Virus record (IMG/VR): IMGVR_UViG_3300023179_000516
Location: 1-23,613 of that record
Length of the DNA stretch: 23,613 bases
Direction: 5' to 3' (one strand)
Source: a virus
Position numbers and translations under genes: made by a program. Shown in pieces: positions 11,623-21,985 of this stretch. Within the stretch, counting starts at the first letter, position 1; each line of letters begins with the position of its first letter. The notes below the pieces were generated by a model, which was not told the origin of the DNA, made no database searches, and saw only the letters and a program-made list of their open reading frames with translations.

Positions 11623-12375
11623 TTAAGCTGCTTGTCTGGCTTCTGCTTTAGCCCGTTTTGCTGCACCATCATAATCGGCAACTTTAATTCCACGACGTGT
11701 TAGTAAAGTCTTTAAACCACGTTCTGTTTTATCAATAGCAGCAGCAATTTCTGCAACAGTCATACTATGAATTTTTGAACCTAGTTCTGTAACAGGATCA
11801 ACTTGTTCTTTAGCATAGCTATTTTTCTGAGCAGGAATCTTAGCAATTTGACCTTTACGTGTAAGACTAAGTGCTTTACCACGAACACTAGAAATAGATT
11901 TATTAAGTGCTGTAGCAATATCTTCAATAAAAGCACCTTTTTCTGCAAGTGTAATAAATTTATTTTCTTCTGCTTCTGTATAAGTACGTGCTACTTCTAC
12001 TTTTTCTGCAGGTTTAACACTAGCAGTCATTTCTAATGCTAATAGTTTTCCTTGAATTTGTTTTGCTGTAAACTTTCCATCCATAAACTCTTCCGCAATT
12101 TGTTTATAGGTAAGATTACCGGCATTGTTTACTACAAATTCTGCGAGTTCAGCGCTCTCATCTTCAGTAAATGCACTAGTTTTTTCTTTTGCCATACTAG
12201 CTACTTCTACTTCAAGTTGACGTAACTTGCTAGCTACACTACGAGGAGTAAATTCTTCGCCTAGTGATTCGGCTACTTCCATAACCTTATCAGCACTAAC
12301 TGGTCTTTGTTTACCAATAAGTTTCATAAGCTGTGCTACGGTGTCTTCAGACCATTTTTTGGTTTTTTCAGTCAT
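11623..12375 (-). CDS. Multi-repeat Myb/HTH-like DNA-binding protein (T5 D5 position and size)
   Basis: A 250-residue protein built of about four similar helical repeats. Each begins with an aromatic plus acidic start (KWSEDTVAQL near 8, AFTEDESAEL near 68, TYTEAEENKF near 130) or a matching hydrophobic start (VTELGSKIHSM near 192). Each ends in a recognition-helix-like block (TPRSVASKLRQL, TAKQIQGKLLAL, SISSVRGKALSL, TERGLKTLLTRRG). This is the spacing of SANT/Myb or simple HTH repeats and implies cooperative double-stranded DNA binding. The tail is Ala-, Lys- and Arg-rich. T5 D5, a similarly sized abundant early DNA-binding regulator, lies between the ligase and helicase genes (from memory). 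It starts at the ATG at 12375, overlapping the ligase stop by 8 nt, and a strong terminator follows. Confidence 0.7.
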   Translation of the reverse strand: MTEKTKKWSEDTVAQLMKLIGKQRPVSADKVMEVAESLGEEFTPRSVASKLRQLEVEVASMAKEKTSAFTEDESAELAEFVVNNAGNLTYKQIAEEFMDGKFTAKQIQGKLLALEMTASVKPAEKVEVARTYTEAEENKFITLAEKGAFIEDIATALNKSISSVRGKALSLTRKGQIAKIPAQKNSYAKEQVDPVTELGSKIHSMTVAEIAAAIDKTERGLKTLLTRRGIKVADYDGAAKRAKAEARQAA

Positions 12376-13132
12376 TGATTTGTTCTCTTAAAAAAGTTTC
12401 TAAGTTTGTAATAATTTTAATTCCGAGTTGTTCGGCTTTTTTACGTTTTGTACTGCTTCTATCTTCTTCATCAACTAAATAGTTAGTGGCCTTAGTTACT
12501 GATTCGGTTATAATAAAACCATTTTGTTCTAATATTTTATAGGCCTCTGCCTTAGTTTTAAAAGAAGATAATTTACCAGTAATGCATACTGTTTTTGTTT
12601 CATTCTGCACTATGGTAGTTTCGCTATTAAATGAAAAAGGTAAAAATTCTTTCATTTCTACGAAATCTGTTTCTAACCAGTTTAATAAATTACTAGTTAC
12701 TTTTTCTCCTAAACCAGCTTGTTTACAAGTTTTTATATTAATTTCGTTAATATTTTTAACTACTTTGGATATTTTTTGACTAGCTGTGTTTCCTACTAGT
12801 GGTATACTAAAACTTGCTAGTATTTGATCAAGTGTTGCTAAACGACTACTATCTATTTGAGATATTAATTTTTCAGCTAATTTAATACTACCTAACTGTT
12901 TAGCTACTGTATCTAATTCTAGATAATAAATTTCTGTAATATCTGTAAGTTCTAACTTTTCGATTGTTTTAGTGCCCATACCCTTAATATTCATAGATTT
13001 ACAAAAATGTTCTATTCGTTTAAGTAATTGAGCATCACATGCTTTATTTCTACAAAATAATTGATCATTAACCAATTCTAATTTATAGTTACAACATGGA
13101 CAGTGTGTTGGTATTTCAATCTTCATAATCAT
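12368..13132 (-). CDS. ligB: NAD+-dependent DNA ligase, C-terminal subunit (zinc finger, HhH, BRCT)
   Basis: A 254-residue protein equal to the C-terminal half of bacterial LigA. It has a four-Cys zinc finger (Cys11, Cys14, Cys27, Cys32), helix-hairpin-helix repeats that grip nicked DNA (MNIKGMGTKTIEKL; FSIPLVGNTASQKI) and a BRCT domain from about residue 178 (KTVCITGKLSSF, then YLVDEED). It has no adenylation site, so it must act with the N-terminal subunit encoded just upstream. The break falls exactly at the linker between the OB fold and the zinc finger. The gene has its own promoter (13151-13179). The start is ATG at 13132, with a second ATG two codons in; no clear Shine-Dalgarno is seen. 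T5 is known to carry separate ligase A and B genes. Confidence 0.88.
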   Translation of the reverse strand: MIMKIEIPTHCPCCNYKLELVNDQLFCRNKACDAQLLKRIEHFCKSMNIKGMGTKTIEKLELTDITEIYYLELDTVAKQLGSIKLAEKLISQIDSSRLATLDQILASFSIPLVGNTASQKISKVVKNINEINIKTCKQAGLGEKVTSNLLNWLETDFVEMKEFLPFSFNSETTIVQNETKTVCITGKLSSFKTKAEAYKILEQNGFIITESVTKATNYLVDEEDRSSTKRKKAEQLGIKIITNLETFLREQIND

Positions 13133-13150
13133 TTATTAACTTAAGATATT

Positions 13151-13179
13151 ATTATACAGCAGTAATTAGTAATTTACAA
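13151..13179 (-). promoter_or_regulatory. Sigma-70-type promoter for the ligase C-terminal subunit
   Basis: On the minus strand, TTGTAA (13179-13174), a 17-base spacer and TATAAT (13156-13151), inside the 80-base gap between the two ligase genes. The leader to the ATG at 13132 is about 12 nt and carries no good Shine-Dalgarno. Confidence 0.65.
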
Positions 13180-13212
13180 GCTAAAATTTTATTACCCCTT
13201 AGCAACTAAAAA

Positions 13213-14166
13213 TTATGCATCAACTTTATGTAGTATACAAGGTATAATTTCTCCAGCACGAGCAACTGCTACAGTATCGCCTATACGTAGATCTAAAGCT
13301 TCGATAAAACCTGGATTATTTAATGTTGCTCTGCTTATTAGAGCATCACCAATGTAAACAGGATCTAGTATTGCTGTTGGTGTTACTTTTCCAGTTTTAC
13401 CAACATTCCATTCAACACCTAATAATTTAGTTTCTACATGTTTAGCACGCTCTTTACGAGCATAAGCACCCCTAGGATGTTTACTAGTATAGCCCATTTC
13501 TTGAAACTTAAAGTTATCATTTACTCTAATTACTAGACCATCGCTAGGATAGATTTTATCTAAATCTGGTTCTAGTACTGTACTAAAACCTAGAAACTTA
13601 AGATAGTTCATTTCATCTGTCCACAATTGGTAGTGACTAGGACTAATTTGATATGCAAAAAATTCTAGTGCTCTAGTGCGAAATTCTGCTACATCTTTAA
13701 GATTTAAACTACCCGCAGCATAATTTCTGGAATTTTCTATGTGTAATGGGGCTACAATCTCACCTGTGATTTGTACTGTTAAGTTGTTATTTAATTGTAG
13801 GGGAACAAGATTACCATGTTCATACATTTTATCTGTAATAACTTGACCTTCAATACCATCACCACGAGTAAGTGCTTGAGTAAGTATGCCTTCTTGATAT
13901 AACAAACTAATAGCTGCGCCGTCAAGTTTAATACTAGTTGTAACGTCAAGTCCTGCTAATGGATCAGATTTGTTATCATCTTCATAAAATTTTTGAAGGC
14001 TATACATTTGATATAAGTGTTTTGCTTTCTTACCATGCACAGCAGCACCTACTTTAGTATAATCACAACTTTCTGCTAGTATATCAAAAATATAATCACT
14101 AATAGTTGGTTTACCTGCATAATAGGCTTCGCTTGCTTTGTCTAATAATTTGTGTAATTTATTCAT
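13213..14166 (-). CDS. ligA: NAD+-dependent DNA ligase, N-terminal adenylation subunit
   Basis: A 317-residue protein matching LigA domains Ia, adenylation and OB. The NMN-binding Ia region is SEAYYAGKPTISDYIFD (12-28). The adenylated lysine lies in KLDG (Lys80), with RGDG at 101-104, GEIV (Glu136) and DGLVIRV at 209-215. The OB fold holds VEWNVGKTGKVTPTA and GDTVAVARAGEIIPC. The protein stops there, where normal LigA (about 670 aa) continues into zinc finger, HhH and BRCT. Those parts are the next gene downstream. All active-site residues are present, so self-adenylation should work, with nick binding supplied by the partner. The ATG at 14166 is fixed by the Ia domain and lies 7 bases after a TATAAT, so the mRNA should be leaderless. 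Confidence 0.9.
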   Translation of the reverse strand: MNKLHKLLDKASEAYYAGKPTISDYIFDILAESCDYTKVGAAVHGKKAKHLYQMYSLQKFYEDDNKSDPLAGLDVTTSIKLDGAAISLLYQEGILTQALTRGDGIEGQVITDKMYEHGNLVPLQLNNNLTVQITGEIVAPLHIENSRNYAAGSLNLKDVAEFRTRALEFFAYQISPSHYQLWTDEMNYLKFLGFSTVLEPDLDKIYPSDGLVIRVNDNFKFQEMGYTSKHPRGAYARKERAKHVETKLLGVEWNVGKTGKVTPTAILDPVYIGDALISRATLNNPGFIEALDLRIGDTVAVARAGEIIPCILHKVDA

Positions 14167-20348: not shown

Positions 20349-20427
<79 letters not shown>

Positions 20428-20580
20428 ATATATACTTTATTAATCTATAAAATTAAACCAGCCACCAATAAAATTGGTAATATTATTTATAAAGTATTCT
20501 TTCATTATTTTTAATTTGGTCTGTCTAAAAACTATCTTAAGGTTTTTATTGCAGATATTACTGTAATAACTTTATGTGAA
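20428..20580 (-). other. AT-rich spacer between tRNA genes
   Basis: This holds no convincing gene. A 21-codon reading frame (20505-20440) has no ribosome binding site. Two weak hairpins are visible (ACCAA/TTGGT and AAAAAC/GTTTTT). It could be the decayed remains of another tRNA or a processing spacer. Confidence 0.4.
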
Positions 20581-20652
20581 ACGGCAAATCGGCATCGAAT
20601 CCACAATCATTTGCTTGGAAGGCAAATTCTCTACCAATTAAGCTACTACTGC
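20581..20652 (-). tRNA. tRNA-Gly(UCC)-like gene with weakened stems
   Basis: It starts 2 nt after the CCA end of tRNA-Gly(GCC). Its lengths are those of a normal tRNA: 7+2, D arm, a perfect anticodon arm TTTGC-CTTCCAA-GCAAA (anticodon UCC), a 5-nt variable loop and a T loop TTCGATG. The stems are poor. The acceptor GCAGTAG/TTGCCGT has three wobbles and one A-C mismatch, the D stem GCTT/GAGA has one mismatch, and the T stem GTGGA/CCGAT has two mismatches. No CCA is encoded. It may be a decaying gene, or functional and unusual. Confidence 0.5.
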
Positions 20653-20653
20653 G

Positions 20654-20729
20654 TGGAGCGGGAAACGAGTCTCGAACTCGCGACCTTAACTTTGGCAAAG
20701 TTACGCTCTACCAACTGAGCTATTCCCGC
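20654..20729 (-). tRNA. tRNA-Gly (anticodon GCC) with encoded CCA
   Basis: A 76-nt complete cloverleaf. The acceptor is GCGGGAA/TTCCCGC, the D arm GCTC/GAGC and the anticodon arm TAACT-TTGCCAA-AGTTA. The T arm is GCGAG-TTCGAGA-CTCGT, followed by discriminator T and CCA. It reads GGC/GGU codons. It lies between the acidic-protein gene and the Gly(UCC)-like sequence, apparently in one transcript. Confidence 0.95.
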
Positions 20730-20814: not shown

Positions 20815-21021
20815 CTAGTCGTTCCACTTGTCATCTTCATTTTCATTTTCATCATTATCTTCAGCATGTGTACTAGTAATTACTAGATCAACATTACTAT
20901 GATTGTCAAGTTCATCCATTAATTCTGCTAATAATTTTAGCAGACGTGTATGATCGTAGTGATCTTCATCGTCACAGTTAAAACTAACTTCTAGATTATG
21001 TGTACTAAGTTGTAAGTGCAT
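20815..21021 (-). CDS. Small very acidic protein (68 aa)
   Basis: A 68-residue protein with a mixed N-terminal half (HLQLSTHNLEVSFNCDDEDH; TRLLKLLAELMDELDN) and a tail dominated by Asp, Glu and Asn (AEDNDENENEDDKWND). No family is recognised. The acidic tail suggests an inhibitor or decoy of a nucleic-acid-binding protein, but this is inference. It starts at the ATG at 21021 with GGAG 7 nt upstream, only 23 nt after the last visible tmRNA hairpin, and it precedes the tRNA genes. It may therefore be made from the 3' part of the tmRNA precursor transcript. Confidence 0.55.
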   Translation of the reverse strand: MHLQLSTHNLEVSFNCDDEDHYDHTRLLKLLAELMDELDNHSNVDLVITSTHAEDNDENENEDDKWND

Positions 21022-21090
21022 TTAATTCTCCAATTTATTGTAGCGGCGGTTGATTGGTTAATAAGGCCAACCGCCAAAACCCCACTTAGC

Positions 21091-21123
21091 TTAAGCAGCT
21101 AAGGCAAAGACCTCGTCGTTTGC
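21091..21123 (-). other. tmRNA tag-peptide reading frame (ANDEVFALAA)
   Basis: Ten codons GCA to GCT and a TAA stop within the coding piece of the tmRNA. The tag ends in ALAA, the ClpXP/ClpAP recognition end, and closely resembles tags of betaproteobacteria (ANDExFALAA). It has no start codon of its own; translation resumes here during trans-translation. An overlapping ATG in another frame is not a gene. Confidence 0.9.
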
Positions 21124-21210
21124 ATTTATTTAATTTGCTAGAATTACGCTCTTCGCCTAGCGAGTTGTCCACGTCAGTACTCTTCACCATGTCGAAACCA
21201 TGTCTGGCCC

Positions 21211-21280
21211 ATCAGAAGCACTCTGGGACGCCGTTTTCGCATCTCGCGGATAACGACCAAGACTTACATCAGAATGCTTT
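21211..21280 (-). other. Intervening segment of the permuted tmRNA precursor
   Basis: The 70 nt between the CCA end and the start of the coding piece, to be removed when the precursor is cut into two RNAs. TTCTGATG occurs at each end (near 21273-21266 and 21217-21210), and AAGCA/TGCTT can pair to extend the acceptor stem. Confidence 0.7.
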
Positions 21281-21375
21281 TGGTGGACCAGGCGGGAGTC
21301 GAACCCGCGTCCACAATGTTTTTCCTTCTATATCATACAACTATAAATTTAATATAAATATTGTTTGTAAAATTT

Positions 21376-21404
21376 ATTATAGTTTCATAATAAAATTCAT
21401 AGAA
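21376..21404 (-). promoter_or_regulatory. Candidate promoter for the tmRNA gene
   Basis: A perfect TATAAT (21381-21376) lies 17 bases after TTCTAT (21404-21399), a poor -35. It overlaps the end of the oxygenase gene. The start near 21369 would give a precursor leader of about 50 nt before the P2 strand. Confidence 0.35.
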
Positions 21405-21985
21405 ATACTAATTCTATTTTTATTACTTAAATTTTCTTCAACTTTATGTTGCAAATGCGATCTAAATATTACTATAGTTTTTTCAGTTGGTTTATAACTA
21501 CACCGATCTGCAGTTGTAAAAGAAATATCATCATCTGTTTTAGGTAATGAATAATTGTCCATAAATCCAGCATGACTTTTGAATATAAGATTACCACTAT
21601 TTTCCGGAACATCCAAATAAATAATTGCGCTAAAATGACTCCAAGAATGGTTGTGATATTCTTGATAGTTTCCTGGTTTTGATATATTAAACCAAAAATC
21701 TTTACATTCTATTTTAAAATTCTTACTTTTTGTATAATTTTTTGCAAATTCTATAACGTGTTTTTGTGCTTTATCTATAGTTTTTTTTACTGGAATATCT
21801 ATAGATGTAAACGCATCATAAATACCTAAAGTATTATATGTGTTGCACTGCCATTCAGTTTTTGGTTTTGGATTTTCTTTATTTATTTTAAATAGTATAT
21901 TATATAAATCTTCATATTCTAAATCAATATGATCACAATATATTAGTGTAGGAAAAATACTTAGAATTTTAGAATCATCAATCAT
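21377..21985 (-). CDS. 2-oxoglutarate/Fe(II)-dependent oxygenase
   Basis: A 202-residue double-stranded beta-helix dioxygenase of the kind common in phages. The sequence around the metal site, NISKPGNYQEYHNHSWSHFS (100-119), supplies a His at 111 or 113. It continues into IIYLDVPENSGNLIF, and the distal His lies in FRSHLQH (His180), with the 2OG-binding Arg in NRISISMNF (Arg191). Such enzymes hydroxylate proteins, nucleic acids or small molecules using 2-oxoglutarate and O2. It begins at the ATG at 21985 without a strong ribosome binding site, 65 bases after the preceding gene. The target is unknown; with the glycosyltransferase and FkbM enzyme nearby, glycan or DNA-base modification is possible. 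Confidence 0.75.
   Translation of the reverse strand: MIDDSKILSIFPTLIYCDHIDLEYEDLYNILFKINKENPKPKTEWQCNTYNTLGIYDAFTSIDIPVKKTIDKAQKHVIEFAKNYTKSKNFKIECKDFWFNISKPGNYQEYHNHSWSHFSAIIYLDVPENSGNLIFKSHAGFMDNYSLPKTDDDISFTTADRCSYKPTEKTIVIFRSHLQHKVEENLSNKNRISISMNFIMKL

What the first reader, a model, noticed from the sequence alone, without database searches (positions are those of the whole stretch)
21045..21318. Phage-encoded circularly permuted tmRNA
Seen directly: T arm, acceptor 3' strand and CCA precede the acceptor 5' strand, P2 and tag frame in the same transcript, with a 70-nt spacer. This is the two-piece permuted architecture known from alphaproteobacteria, some cyanobacteria and some betaproteobacteria. 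Phage tmRNAs are known, but a permuted one on a phage is unusual to my knowledge. It implies capture from, or matching to, a host with two-piece tmRNA, and the phage then depends on host SmpB and on precursor cleavage.
Basis: partly seen in the sequence, partly recalled or inferred. Interest (0 to 1): 0.9.

Follow-up and report, generated by a model that had tools for sequence, protein, structure and literature searches.

The report
Phage two-piece tmRNA gene
This virus of bacteria carries its own complete ribosome-rescue RNA gene in the rearranged "two-piece" form, a type already reported in other phages, but related phages turn out to keep whole protein genes inside the segment that is cut out of this RNA, which I could not find described before.

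Summary
A complete circularly permuted tmRNA (ssrA) gene lies on the minus strand at about 21345-21039. ARAGORN calls tmRNA*, and Rfam tmRNA_permuted gives 137.8 bits and beta_tmRNA 132 bits. It has a 7-bp acceptor stem with the G3-U70 alanine identity pair, encoded CCA, a 70-nt intervening segment (IVS, 21280-21211) and the tag ANDEVFALAA. It sits in a T5-like phage fragment; at least 15 relatives carry it, mostly beside tRNA genes.

The claim that a permuted tmRNA on a phage is unusual does not hold. A 2022 paper found 53 of 133 distinct phage tmRNAs to be two-piece (PMC9004378), and I recovered 265 viral copies. In a short-alignment tree phage copies cluster together next to betaproteobacterial ones, so recent host capture is not supported.

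What looks new lies in the relatives. The IVS is a swappable slot, often holding a protein gene: HNH endonuclease, IscU, thioredoxin, many small proteins. Of 21 non-redundant IVSs of 150 nt or more, 18 are filled by an ORF, against 0.35 expected from shuffles. One family shows purifying selection. Sampled bacterial IVSs were short and non-coding. The window's own IVS is a plain hairpin. Processing and translation are inferred.

The parts
21281..21345 (-). acceptor/T piece of the permuted tmRNA: inter-piece helix strand (21342-21338), T arm (21308-21292), acceptor 3' strand CTGGTCC (21291-21285), encoded ACCA (21284-21281)
   Evidence: Rfam RF04321 and RF01850 alignments; coordinates; the exact 5' end of the mature piece is not known
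21211..21280 (-). intervening segment (IVS), 70 nt, non-coding hairpin whose ends (AAAGCATTCTG / CAGAGTGCTTC) extend the acceptor helix
   Evidence: z = -2.93 for the acceptor-IVS fold; 10 of 11 end positions pair
21091..21210 (-). coding piece, first part: acceptor 5' strand GGGCCAG (21210-21204, G3-U70 with CTGGTCC), D-loop analogue GGTTTCGAC, inter-piece helix strand (21167-21163), resume region and tag
21091..21123 (-). tag reading frame ANDEVFALAA* (proteolysis-tag type, ends ALAA)
   Evidence: ARAGORN; translation
21039..21090 (-). 3' part of the coding piece with hairpin GGCGGTTGGCC...CAACCGCC (21075-21045), matching the terminal structure of the beta_tmRNA model
   Evidence: RF01850 alignment
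20349..20729 (-). three phage tRNA genes downstream: Gly(gcc) 20729-20654, Gly(tcc) 20652-20580, Met(cat) 20427-20349
   Evidence: tRNA genes also flank the tmRNA in relatives
20815..21021 (-). small ORF (68 aa) directly downstream, no family match
21377..21985 (-). 2OG-Fe(II) oxygenase gene directly upstream, about 30 nt before the tmRNA
   Evidence: PF13759 6.9e-21, phrog_81 9e-39

Best explanation
The window carries an intact phage-borne, beta-type circularly permuted tmRNA gene. Proposed working: the gene is transcribed on the minus strand, probably with neighbouring tRNAs. The two acceptor strands pair across the IVS, whose own ends lengthen that helix. Host tRNA-processing enzymes (RNase P before G21210, a 3'-processing nuclease after A21281) remove the 70-nt IVS, leaving two RNA pieces held by the acceptor stem and a short inter-piece helix. 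Host AlaRS charges the CCA end through G3-U70, host SmpB delivers it to stalled ribosomes, and the tag ANDEVFALAA marks the unfinished protein for host proteases such as ClpXP. During infection this would recycle ribosomes when mRNA is being destroyed. In this phage lineage the IVS slot is interchangeable: a hairpin here, protein-coding cassettes in some relatives. Shown by sequence: gene architecture, identity pair, tag, covariation, synteny, IVS swapping. Inferred: transcription, processing, charging, tagging and benefit to the phage.
For: ARAGORN tmRNA* with tag ANDEVFALAA. RF04321 137.8 bits over a cut-off of 47, RF01850 132 bits over 84. 7/7 acceptor pairs with G3-U70, encoded CCA. Acceptor-IVS hairpin more stable than shuffles, z = -2.93, 4 of 200 as good. 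RF04321 hits over the cut-off in 14 of 80 DNA-polymerase relatives, near tRNA genes, with a fifteenth (L217) clear once its 577-nt IVS is allowed. Compensatory acceptor changes among them. Phage replication genes of T5 type in the window. No SmpB in 18 phage records while the control rings in 10 of 14 genomes. IVS swap in place: L210 and L205 are 96% identical on both sides, yet their IVSs share no 8-mer.
Against: No RNA data. No promoter or terminator stands out near the gene (matches at shuffle level). The record is a 23.6-kb metagenomic fragment without known host. The tree rests on 128 columns and its bootstrap had not settled. Benefit to the phage is untested. Whole-gene fold energy alone is only weakly unusual (z = -1.52).
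Confidence: 0.9

Rival explanations
1. The gene was recently captured from a betaproteobacterial host with a two-piece tmRNA and simply mirrors the host gene.
For: Best clan model is beta_tmRNA; bacterial beta-type copies are the nearest bacterial group in the tree.
Against: Viral copies from unrelated phages form one supported cluster (98/95) apart from bacterial copies. T5-like relatives fall in more than one place among other phages. Only 13 of 250 sampled genomes of the one beta-type-bearing order searched have a permuted gene over the cut-off. Some near relatives carry alpha-type T loops in the same locus.
Confidence: 0.12
2. The gene is a decoy: it titrates host SmpB or AlaRS and inhibits host trans-translation rather than performing it, as reported for the tag-less tmRNA of phage DS6A.
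For: PMC11915505 reports that a CDS-less phage DS6A tmRNA inhibits endogenous tmRNA when expressed in E. coli. No SmpB gene was found in the phage records held.
Against: The window gene keeps the tag frame with an ALAA end, the resume region and the 3' structured part. Tag frames of the ten-residue type are kept across relatives (ANDEVYALAA, ANDSQFALAA, ANDNTFALAA, ANDESFALAA).
Confidence: 0.08
3. Permuted gene remnant left by integration or excision at a host tmRNA gene (attachment-site fragment).
For: tmRNA genes are common integration targets (PMC11915505).
Against: Both halves and all interactions are complete and conserved in at least 15 relatives, mostly near tRNA genes; the phage type is T5-like.
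Confidence: 0.02

Closest known systems
Phage-borne two-piece tmRNA of Methylophilales phage Melnitz and other aquatic phages (PMC9004378)
   Same: Permuted two-piece gene on an aquatic phage; that paper classes 53 of 133 phage tmRNA structures as two-piece
   Different: Melnitz copy is reported as alpha-like with a glutamine riboswitch; this one is beta-type, in a T5-like phage, with no riboswitch match
beta_tmRNA, Rfam RF01850 (betaproteobacterial permuted tmRNA)
   Same: Matches the model from end to end, 132 bits; TTCGANT T loop, G3-U70, tag of NDE..ALAA type
   Different: Phage-borne; groups with other phage copies in the tree; longer IVS (70 nt; sampled bacterial median 33 nt)
tmRNA_permuted, Rfam RF04321 (general permuted family, PMC11915505)
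   Same: 137.8 bits, positions 1-213 of 213
   Different: Nothing for the window copy; relatives carry IVS lengths up to 577 nt with coding content, which that paper's text does not mention (it notes one IVS with a tRNA-Ala and one with a repetitive element)
23S rRNA intervening sequences with the S23p ORF (for example Coxiella, PMC4990558)
   Same: Works-like parallel for the relatives only: a segment cut out of a stable RNA holds a small protein gene (abstract)
   Different: Different RNA, no homology tested; the abstract says results suggest the protein is not made there

Membership tests
Permuted (two-piece) tmRNA | T arm, acceptor 3' strand and CCA encoded upstream of acceptor 5' strand and tag in one transcript unit | tested here: met
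Permuted (two-piece) tmRNA | Score over the Rfam permuted model cut-off | tested here: met
   RF04321 137.8 bits, cut-off 47
Permuted (two-piece) tmRNA | 7-bp acceptor stem with G3-U70 and discriminator A plus CCA | tested here: met
   GGGCCAG with CTGGTCC, ACCA
Permuted (two-piece) tmRNA | Tag reading frame with stop, ending in a hydrophobic AA signal | tested here: met
   ANDEVFALAA*
Permuted (two-piece) tmRNA | Precursor cut into two pieces held by base pairing | not testable with these tools
   needs RNA end mapping; the pairing potential is present
Permuted (two-piece) tmRNA | Works with SmpB and is charged with alanine | not testable with these tools
   no SmpB gene in the phage records held; identity pair present
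beta_tmRNA (RF01850) | Score over the beta model cut-off and best of its clan | tested here: met
   132 bits, cut-off 84, best clan match
beta_tmRNA (RF01850) | Groups with betaproteobacterial genes in a tree | tested here: inconclusive
   same large branch as beta copies, but inside a phage cluster; 128 columns only

The most novel reading that the evidence does not exclude
In phages, the segment excised from permuted tmRNA genes is a cassette slot for real protein genes. The cassette typically starts straight after the encoded CCA with a Shine-Dalgarno sequence inside the IVS stem (CCACCA|UAAGGAAGUUU-AUG) and stops a few bases before the acceptor 5' strand (...KVSL-UGA-U|GGGCC), so the tRNA-processing cuts would release a mini-mRNA and both tmRNA pieces from one transcript. 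Contents include an HNH endonuclease (in a T5-like relative of the window), IscU/NifU, thioredoxin and many unknown small proteins, and the slot is swapped in place between close relatives. The window's own IVS is the non-coding hairpin form of the same slot.
Probability: 0.8. Interest if true: 0.75.

Novelty: new member of a known kind. Interest (0 to 1): 0.5.

Why it matters
The window copy adds a T5-like phage lineage to the known phage permuted tmRNAs and argues that phages exchange these genes among themselves instead of repeatedly taking them from hosts. The larger point comes from its relatives. If phages keep protein genes inside the excised segment of a permuted tmRNA, this gives permutation a use that has not been proposed as far as I could find, makes tRNA processing an mRNA-release step, and reveals a class of small phage genes that annotation skips: ARAGORN did not call the HNH-bearing gene (L217), and tmRNA calls can mask such ORFs. 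An HNH gene in the slot parallels homing endonucleases in introns. Each of these points can be tested by RNA end mapping and ribosome profiling.

Tried and rejected
1) Variant elbow as a novelty: L204, L209, L211, L212, L213 and L216 have T loops GGCAGTT or TGCRAAT paired with D loops TAGA/TAGT, which first looked like a new covariation. The bacterial control shows GGCAGTA/GGCGGTA T loops with TAGGATCGAC D loops as normal in the alpha-type genes, so this is alpha/beta mosaicism; rejected as new. 2) Ribozyme or riboswitch in the IVS: no Rfam match at E up to 1-2 beyond tmRNA, tRNA and hits below the gathering score. 3) Genome-collection scan for a near-identical host gene with a phage-specific string: 0 matches. 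4) Isolate phages with a coding IVS: tblastn with three IVS proteins gave none, and the IscU homologue in Phage C48C1 lies in an ordinary gene string, not in a tmRNA; the seven isolates with permuted tmRNA examined have IVSs without an IVS-filling SD-led ORF. 5) HNH relatives elsewhere in IMG/VR: only the same contig. 6) Promoter and terminator scan: at shuffle level.

Full report
OBSERVATION. The minus strand of the window at 21345-21039 holds a complete circularly permuted tmRNA gene. ARAGORN calls tmRNA* with tag ANDEVFALAA. Rfam gives tmRNA_permuted (RF04321) 137.8 bits, E 2.3e-27, positions 1-213 of 213, and beta_tmRNA (RF01850) 132 bits, E 2e-40, positions 1-331 of 331. Order along the transcript: inter-piece helix strand (21342-21338), T arm (21308-21292), acceptor 3' strand CTGGTCC (21291-21285), ACCA (21284-21281), a 70-nt intervening segment or IVS (21280-21211), acceptor 5' strand GGGCCAG (21210-21204), D-loop analogue, inter-piece helix strand (21167-21163), tag 21123-21091, terminal hairpin 21075-21045. 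The acceptor stem has 7 of 7 pairs including G3-U70. The IVS folds so that its ends lengthen the acceptor helix (z = -2.93; 10 of 11 end positions pair).

CONTEXT. The window is a 23.6-kb linear IMG/VR virus record with T5-type replication genes: DNA polymerase nearest to T5-like phages at 48-49% identity over nearly the whole protein, primase, DnaB-like helicase, SbcC/SbcD-like proteins, and a NAD-dependent ligase split into two genes. That these phages are T5-like is my reading of the organisms hit. The tmRNA lies between a 2OG-Fe(II) oxygenase gene and a small ORF followed by three tRNAs.

RELATIVES. Of 80 contigs that encode a close polymerase, 14 have RF04321 over the cut-off, a fifteenth (L217) is clear once a long IVS is allowed (72.3 bits), and one more is cut by a contig end (L218). 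The gene sits near tRNA genes (Thr, Gly, Met and others). Many contigs are short fragments, so absence elsewhere means little. Acceptor stems change in a compensatory way and always keep G3-U70. Tags vary but most keep the form AND..(F/Y)ALAA. No SmpB gene was found in 18 phage records, so host SmpB is presumed.

PRIOR ART. A permuted tmRNA on a phage is known. PMC9004378 describes it for phage Melnitz and classes 53 of 133 distinct phage tmRNAs as two-piece, 50 of them from marine or aquatic samples. PMC11915505 holds 79 phage tmRNAs in its database. Sequenced isolates fetched here carry permuted copies: Xanthomonas phages Rb1 and X1, Stenotrophomonas phages QDWS359, DLP_6 and Marzo, Alcaligenes phage QDWS595 and Acinetobacter phage BUCT628. 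A motif scan of IMG/VR gave mostly permuted calls among tmRNAs.

ORIGIN. In a tree of 60 copies (128 columns, bootstrap not settled) viral copies form one cluster with 98/95 support, T5-like copies fall in several places inside it, and betaproteobacterial copies lie next to it. This favours exchange among phages over recent host capture, but the alignment is short. Some T5-like relatives have alpha-type T and D loops, which points to recombination at the locus.

THE IVS SLOT IN RELATIVES. A scan for permuted genes with any IVS length (7 of 7 acceptor pairs plus G3-U70) gave 226 distinct viral copies and 265 after one more scan. Leaving out the last, motif-targeted scan, 223 have median IVS 85 nt, 59 at least 100 nt, 21 at least 150 nt. 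Of the non-redundant IVSs of 150 nt or more, 18 of 21 hold an ORF that starts in the first 20 nt and fills at least 79% of the IVS; reverse complements give 0, dinucleotide shuffles 0.35 on average and at most 3 in 200 runs. For 100 nt or more it is 31 of 48 against 3.44, at most 8. The 79% cut was set after looking at the loci, so it is not a blind threshold, but the gap to shuffles is large. In the enlarged set it is 46 of 68, of which 39 have a purine-rich Shine-Dalgarno-like motif after the CCA by a loose test, and 25 stop exactly 4 nt before the acceptor 5' strand (this set includes loci chosen by that motif, so its counts are not independent evidence). IVS ends pair at 10.3 of 11 positions against 6.0 after shuffling.

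CONTENTS. L309: IscU/NifU, PF01592, 186 bits, 128 aa in a 405-nt IVS. L346: thioredoxin, PF00085, 75 bits, 84 aa. L217, a T5-like relative of the window: HNH endonuclease, 183 aa in a 577-nt IVS, phrog_2255 8e-28. L210, a T5-like relative: 52-aa ORF in a 143-nt IVS. Many others are small unknown proteins. Conservation is at the protein level: in the 123-aa family of six (L636 and others) mean dN 0.030 and dS 0.191, and 35 of 52 variable columns are third codon positions, p = 6e-7 (sequences are related, so the p value is a guide). A second family (MKYTALCP) has 8 of 14 at third positions, p = 0.06; several smaller families show no clear excess. Terminase genes over the cut-off lie on 6 of 20 carrier contigs, including L217's and four contigs of 137-363 kb, so these carriers are phages. 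The slot is swapped in place: L210 and L205 are 96% identical on each side while their IVSs share no 8-mer.

CONTROL. In bacteria, 219 of 240 genomes of the class of G086 (apparently Alphaproteobacteria, inferred from the near-universal permuted gene and the T-loop type) and 13 of 250 of the order of G084 have RF04321 over the cut-off. Fifty-six bacterial loci, picked partly for long spans, have median IVS 33 nt, three of 100 nt or more, and none with an IVS-filling SD-led ORF; one has a 36-codon TTG frame without a Shine-Dalgarno. The control search can miss very long IVSs, so the contrast is suggestive and not a full census.

LIMITS. No RNA or protein data exist here. The coding-IVS copies all come from metagenomic contigs; no cultured isolate with one was found. 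Literature searches found no report of protein genes in the IVS, but most subscription papers are not in the library. PMC11915505 notes one IVS with a tRNA-Ala and one with a repetitive element.

VERDICT. The finding is real and correctly read. As a permuted phage tmRNA it is a new member of a known kind, so I score it moderate. The coding IVS seen in its relatives is the part worth following.

Noticed in passing
L217 (IMGVR_UViG_3300007177_000075), minus strand, IVS 577 nt: A 183-aa HNH endonuclease gene fills the intervening segment of the permuted tmRNA of a T5-like relative of the window; its stop lies in the acceptor 5' strand and no clear Shine-Dalgarno was seen.
   Followed up: partly
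L309, L346, L363, L399, L348, L225, L636 family, L657, L134 family, L246 family and others: Protein-coding cassettes (IscU, thioredoxin, unknown small proteins) fill the IVS of viral permuted tmRNA genes, with a stereotyped start after CCA and stop before the acceptor GGG.
   Followed up: partly
L204, L211, L213, L216, L217 next to the tmRNA: Hairpin elements of about 70-100 nt with long terminal stems lie between a tRNA and the tmRNA or just after it; the L204 upstream and L216 downstream copies share a core (GGGTTAAAACCCCACC...GGGCTCC...GGCTAGCTAGAGT). No Rfam match. Function unknown.
   Followed up: no
L209, L212, L213, L216: Alpha-type T loop and D loop in T5-like phages whose close relatives have the beta type at the same locus: recombination within the gene.
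   Followed up: partly
L217, L209, L212, L213: ARAGORN gives no permuted tmRNA call for these genes although Rfam or acceptor-stem scanning finds them; long-IVS or alpha-type copies are under-annotated.
   Followed up: partly
window 12368-14166: NAD-dependent DNA ligase split into two adjacent genes, each matching its own PHROG family.
   Followed up: no
window 20580-20652: tRNA-Gly(tcc) scores only 36 bits with several broken pairs; it may be decaying.
   Followed up: no
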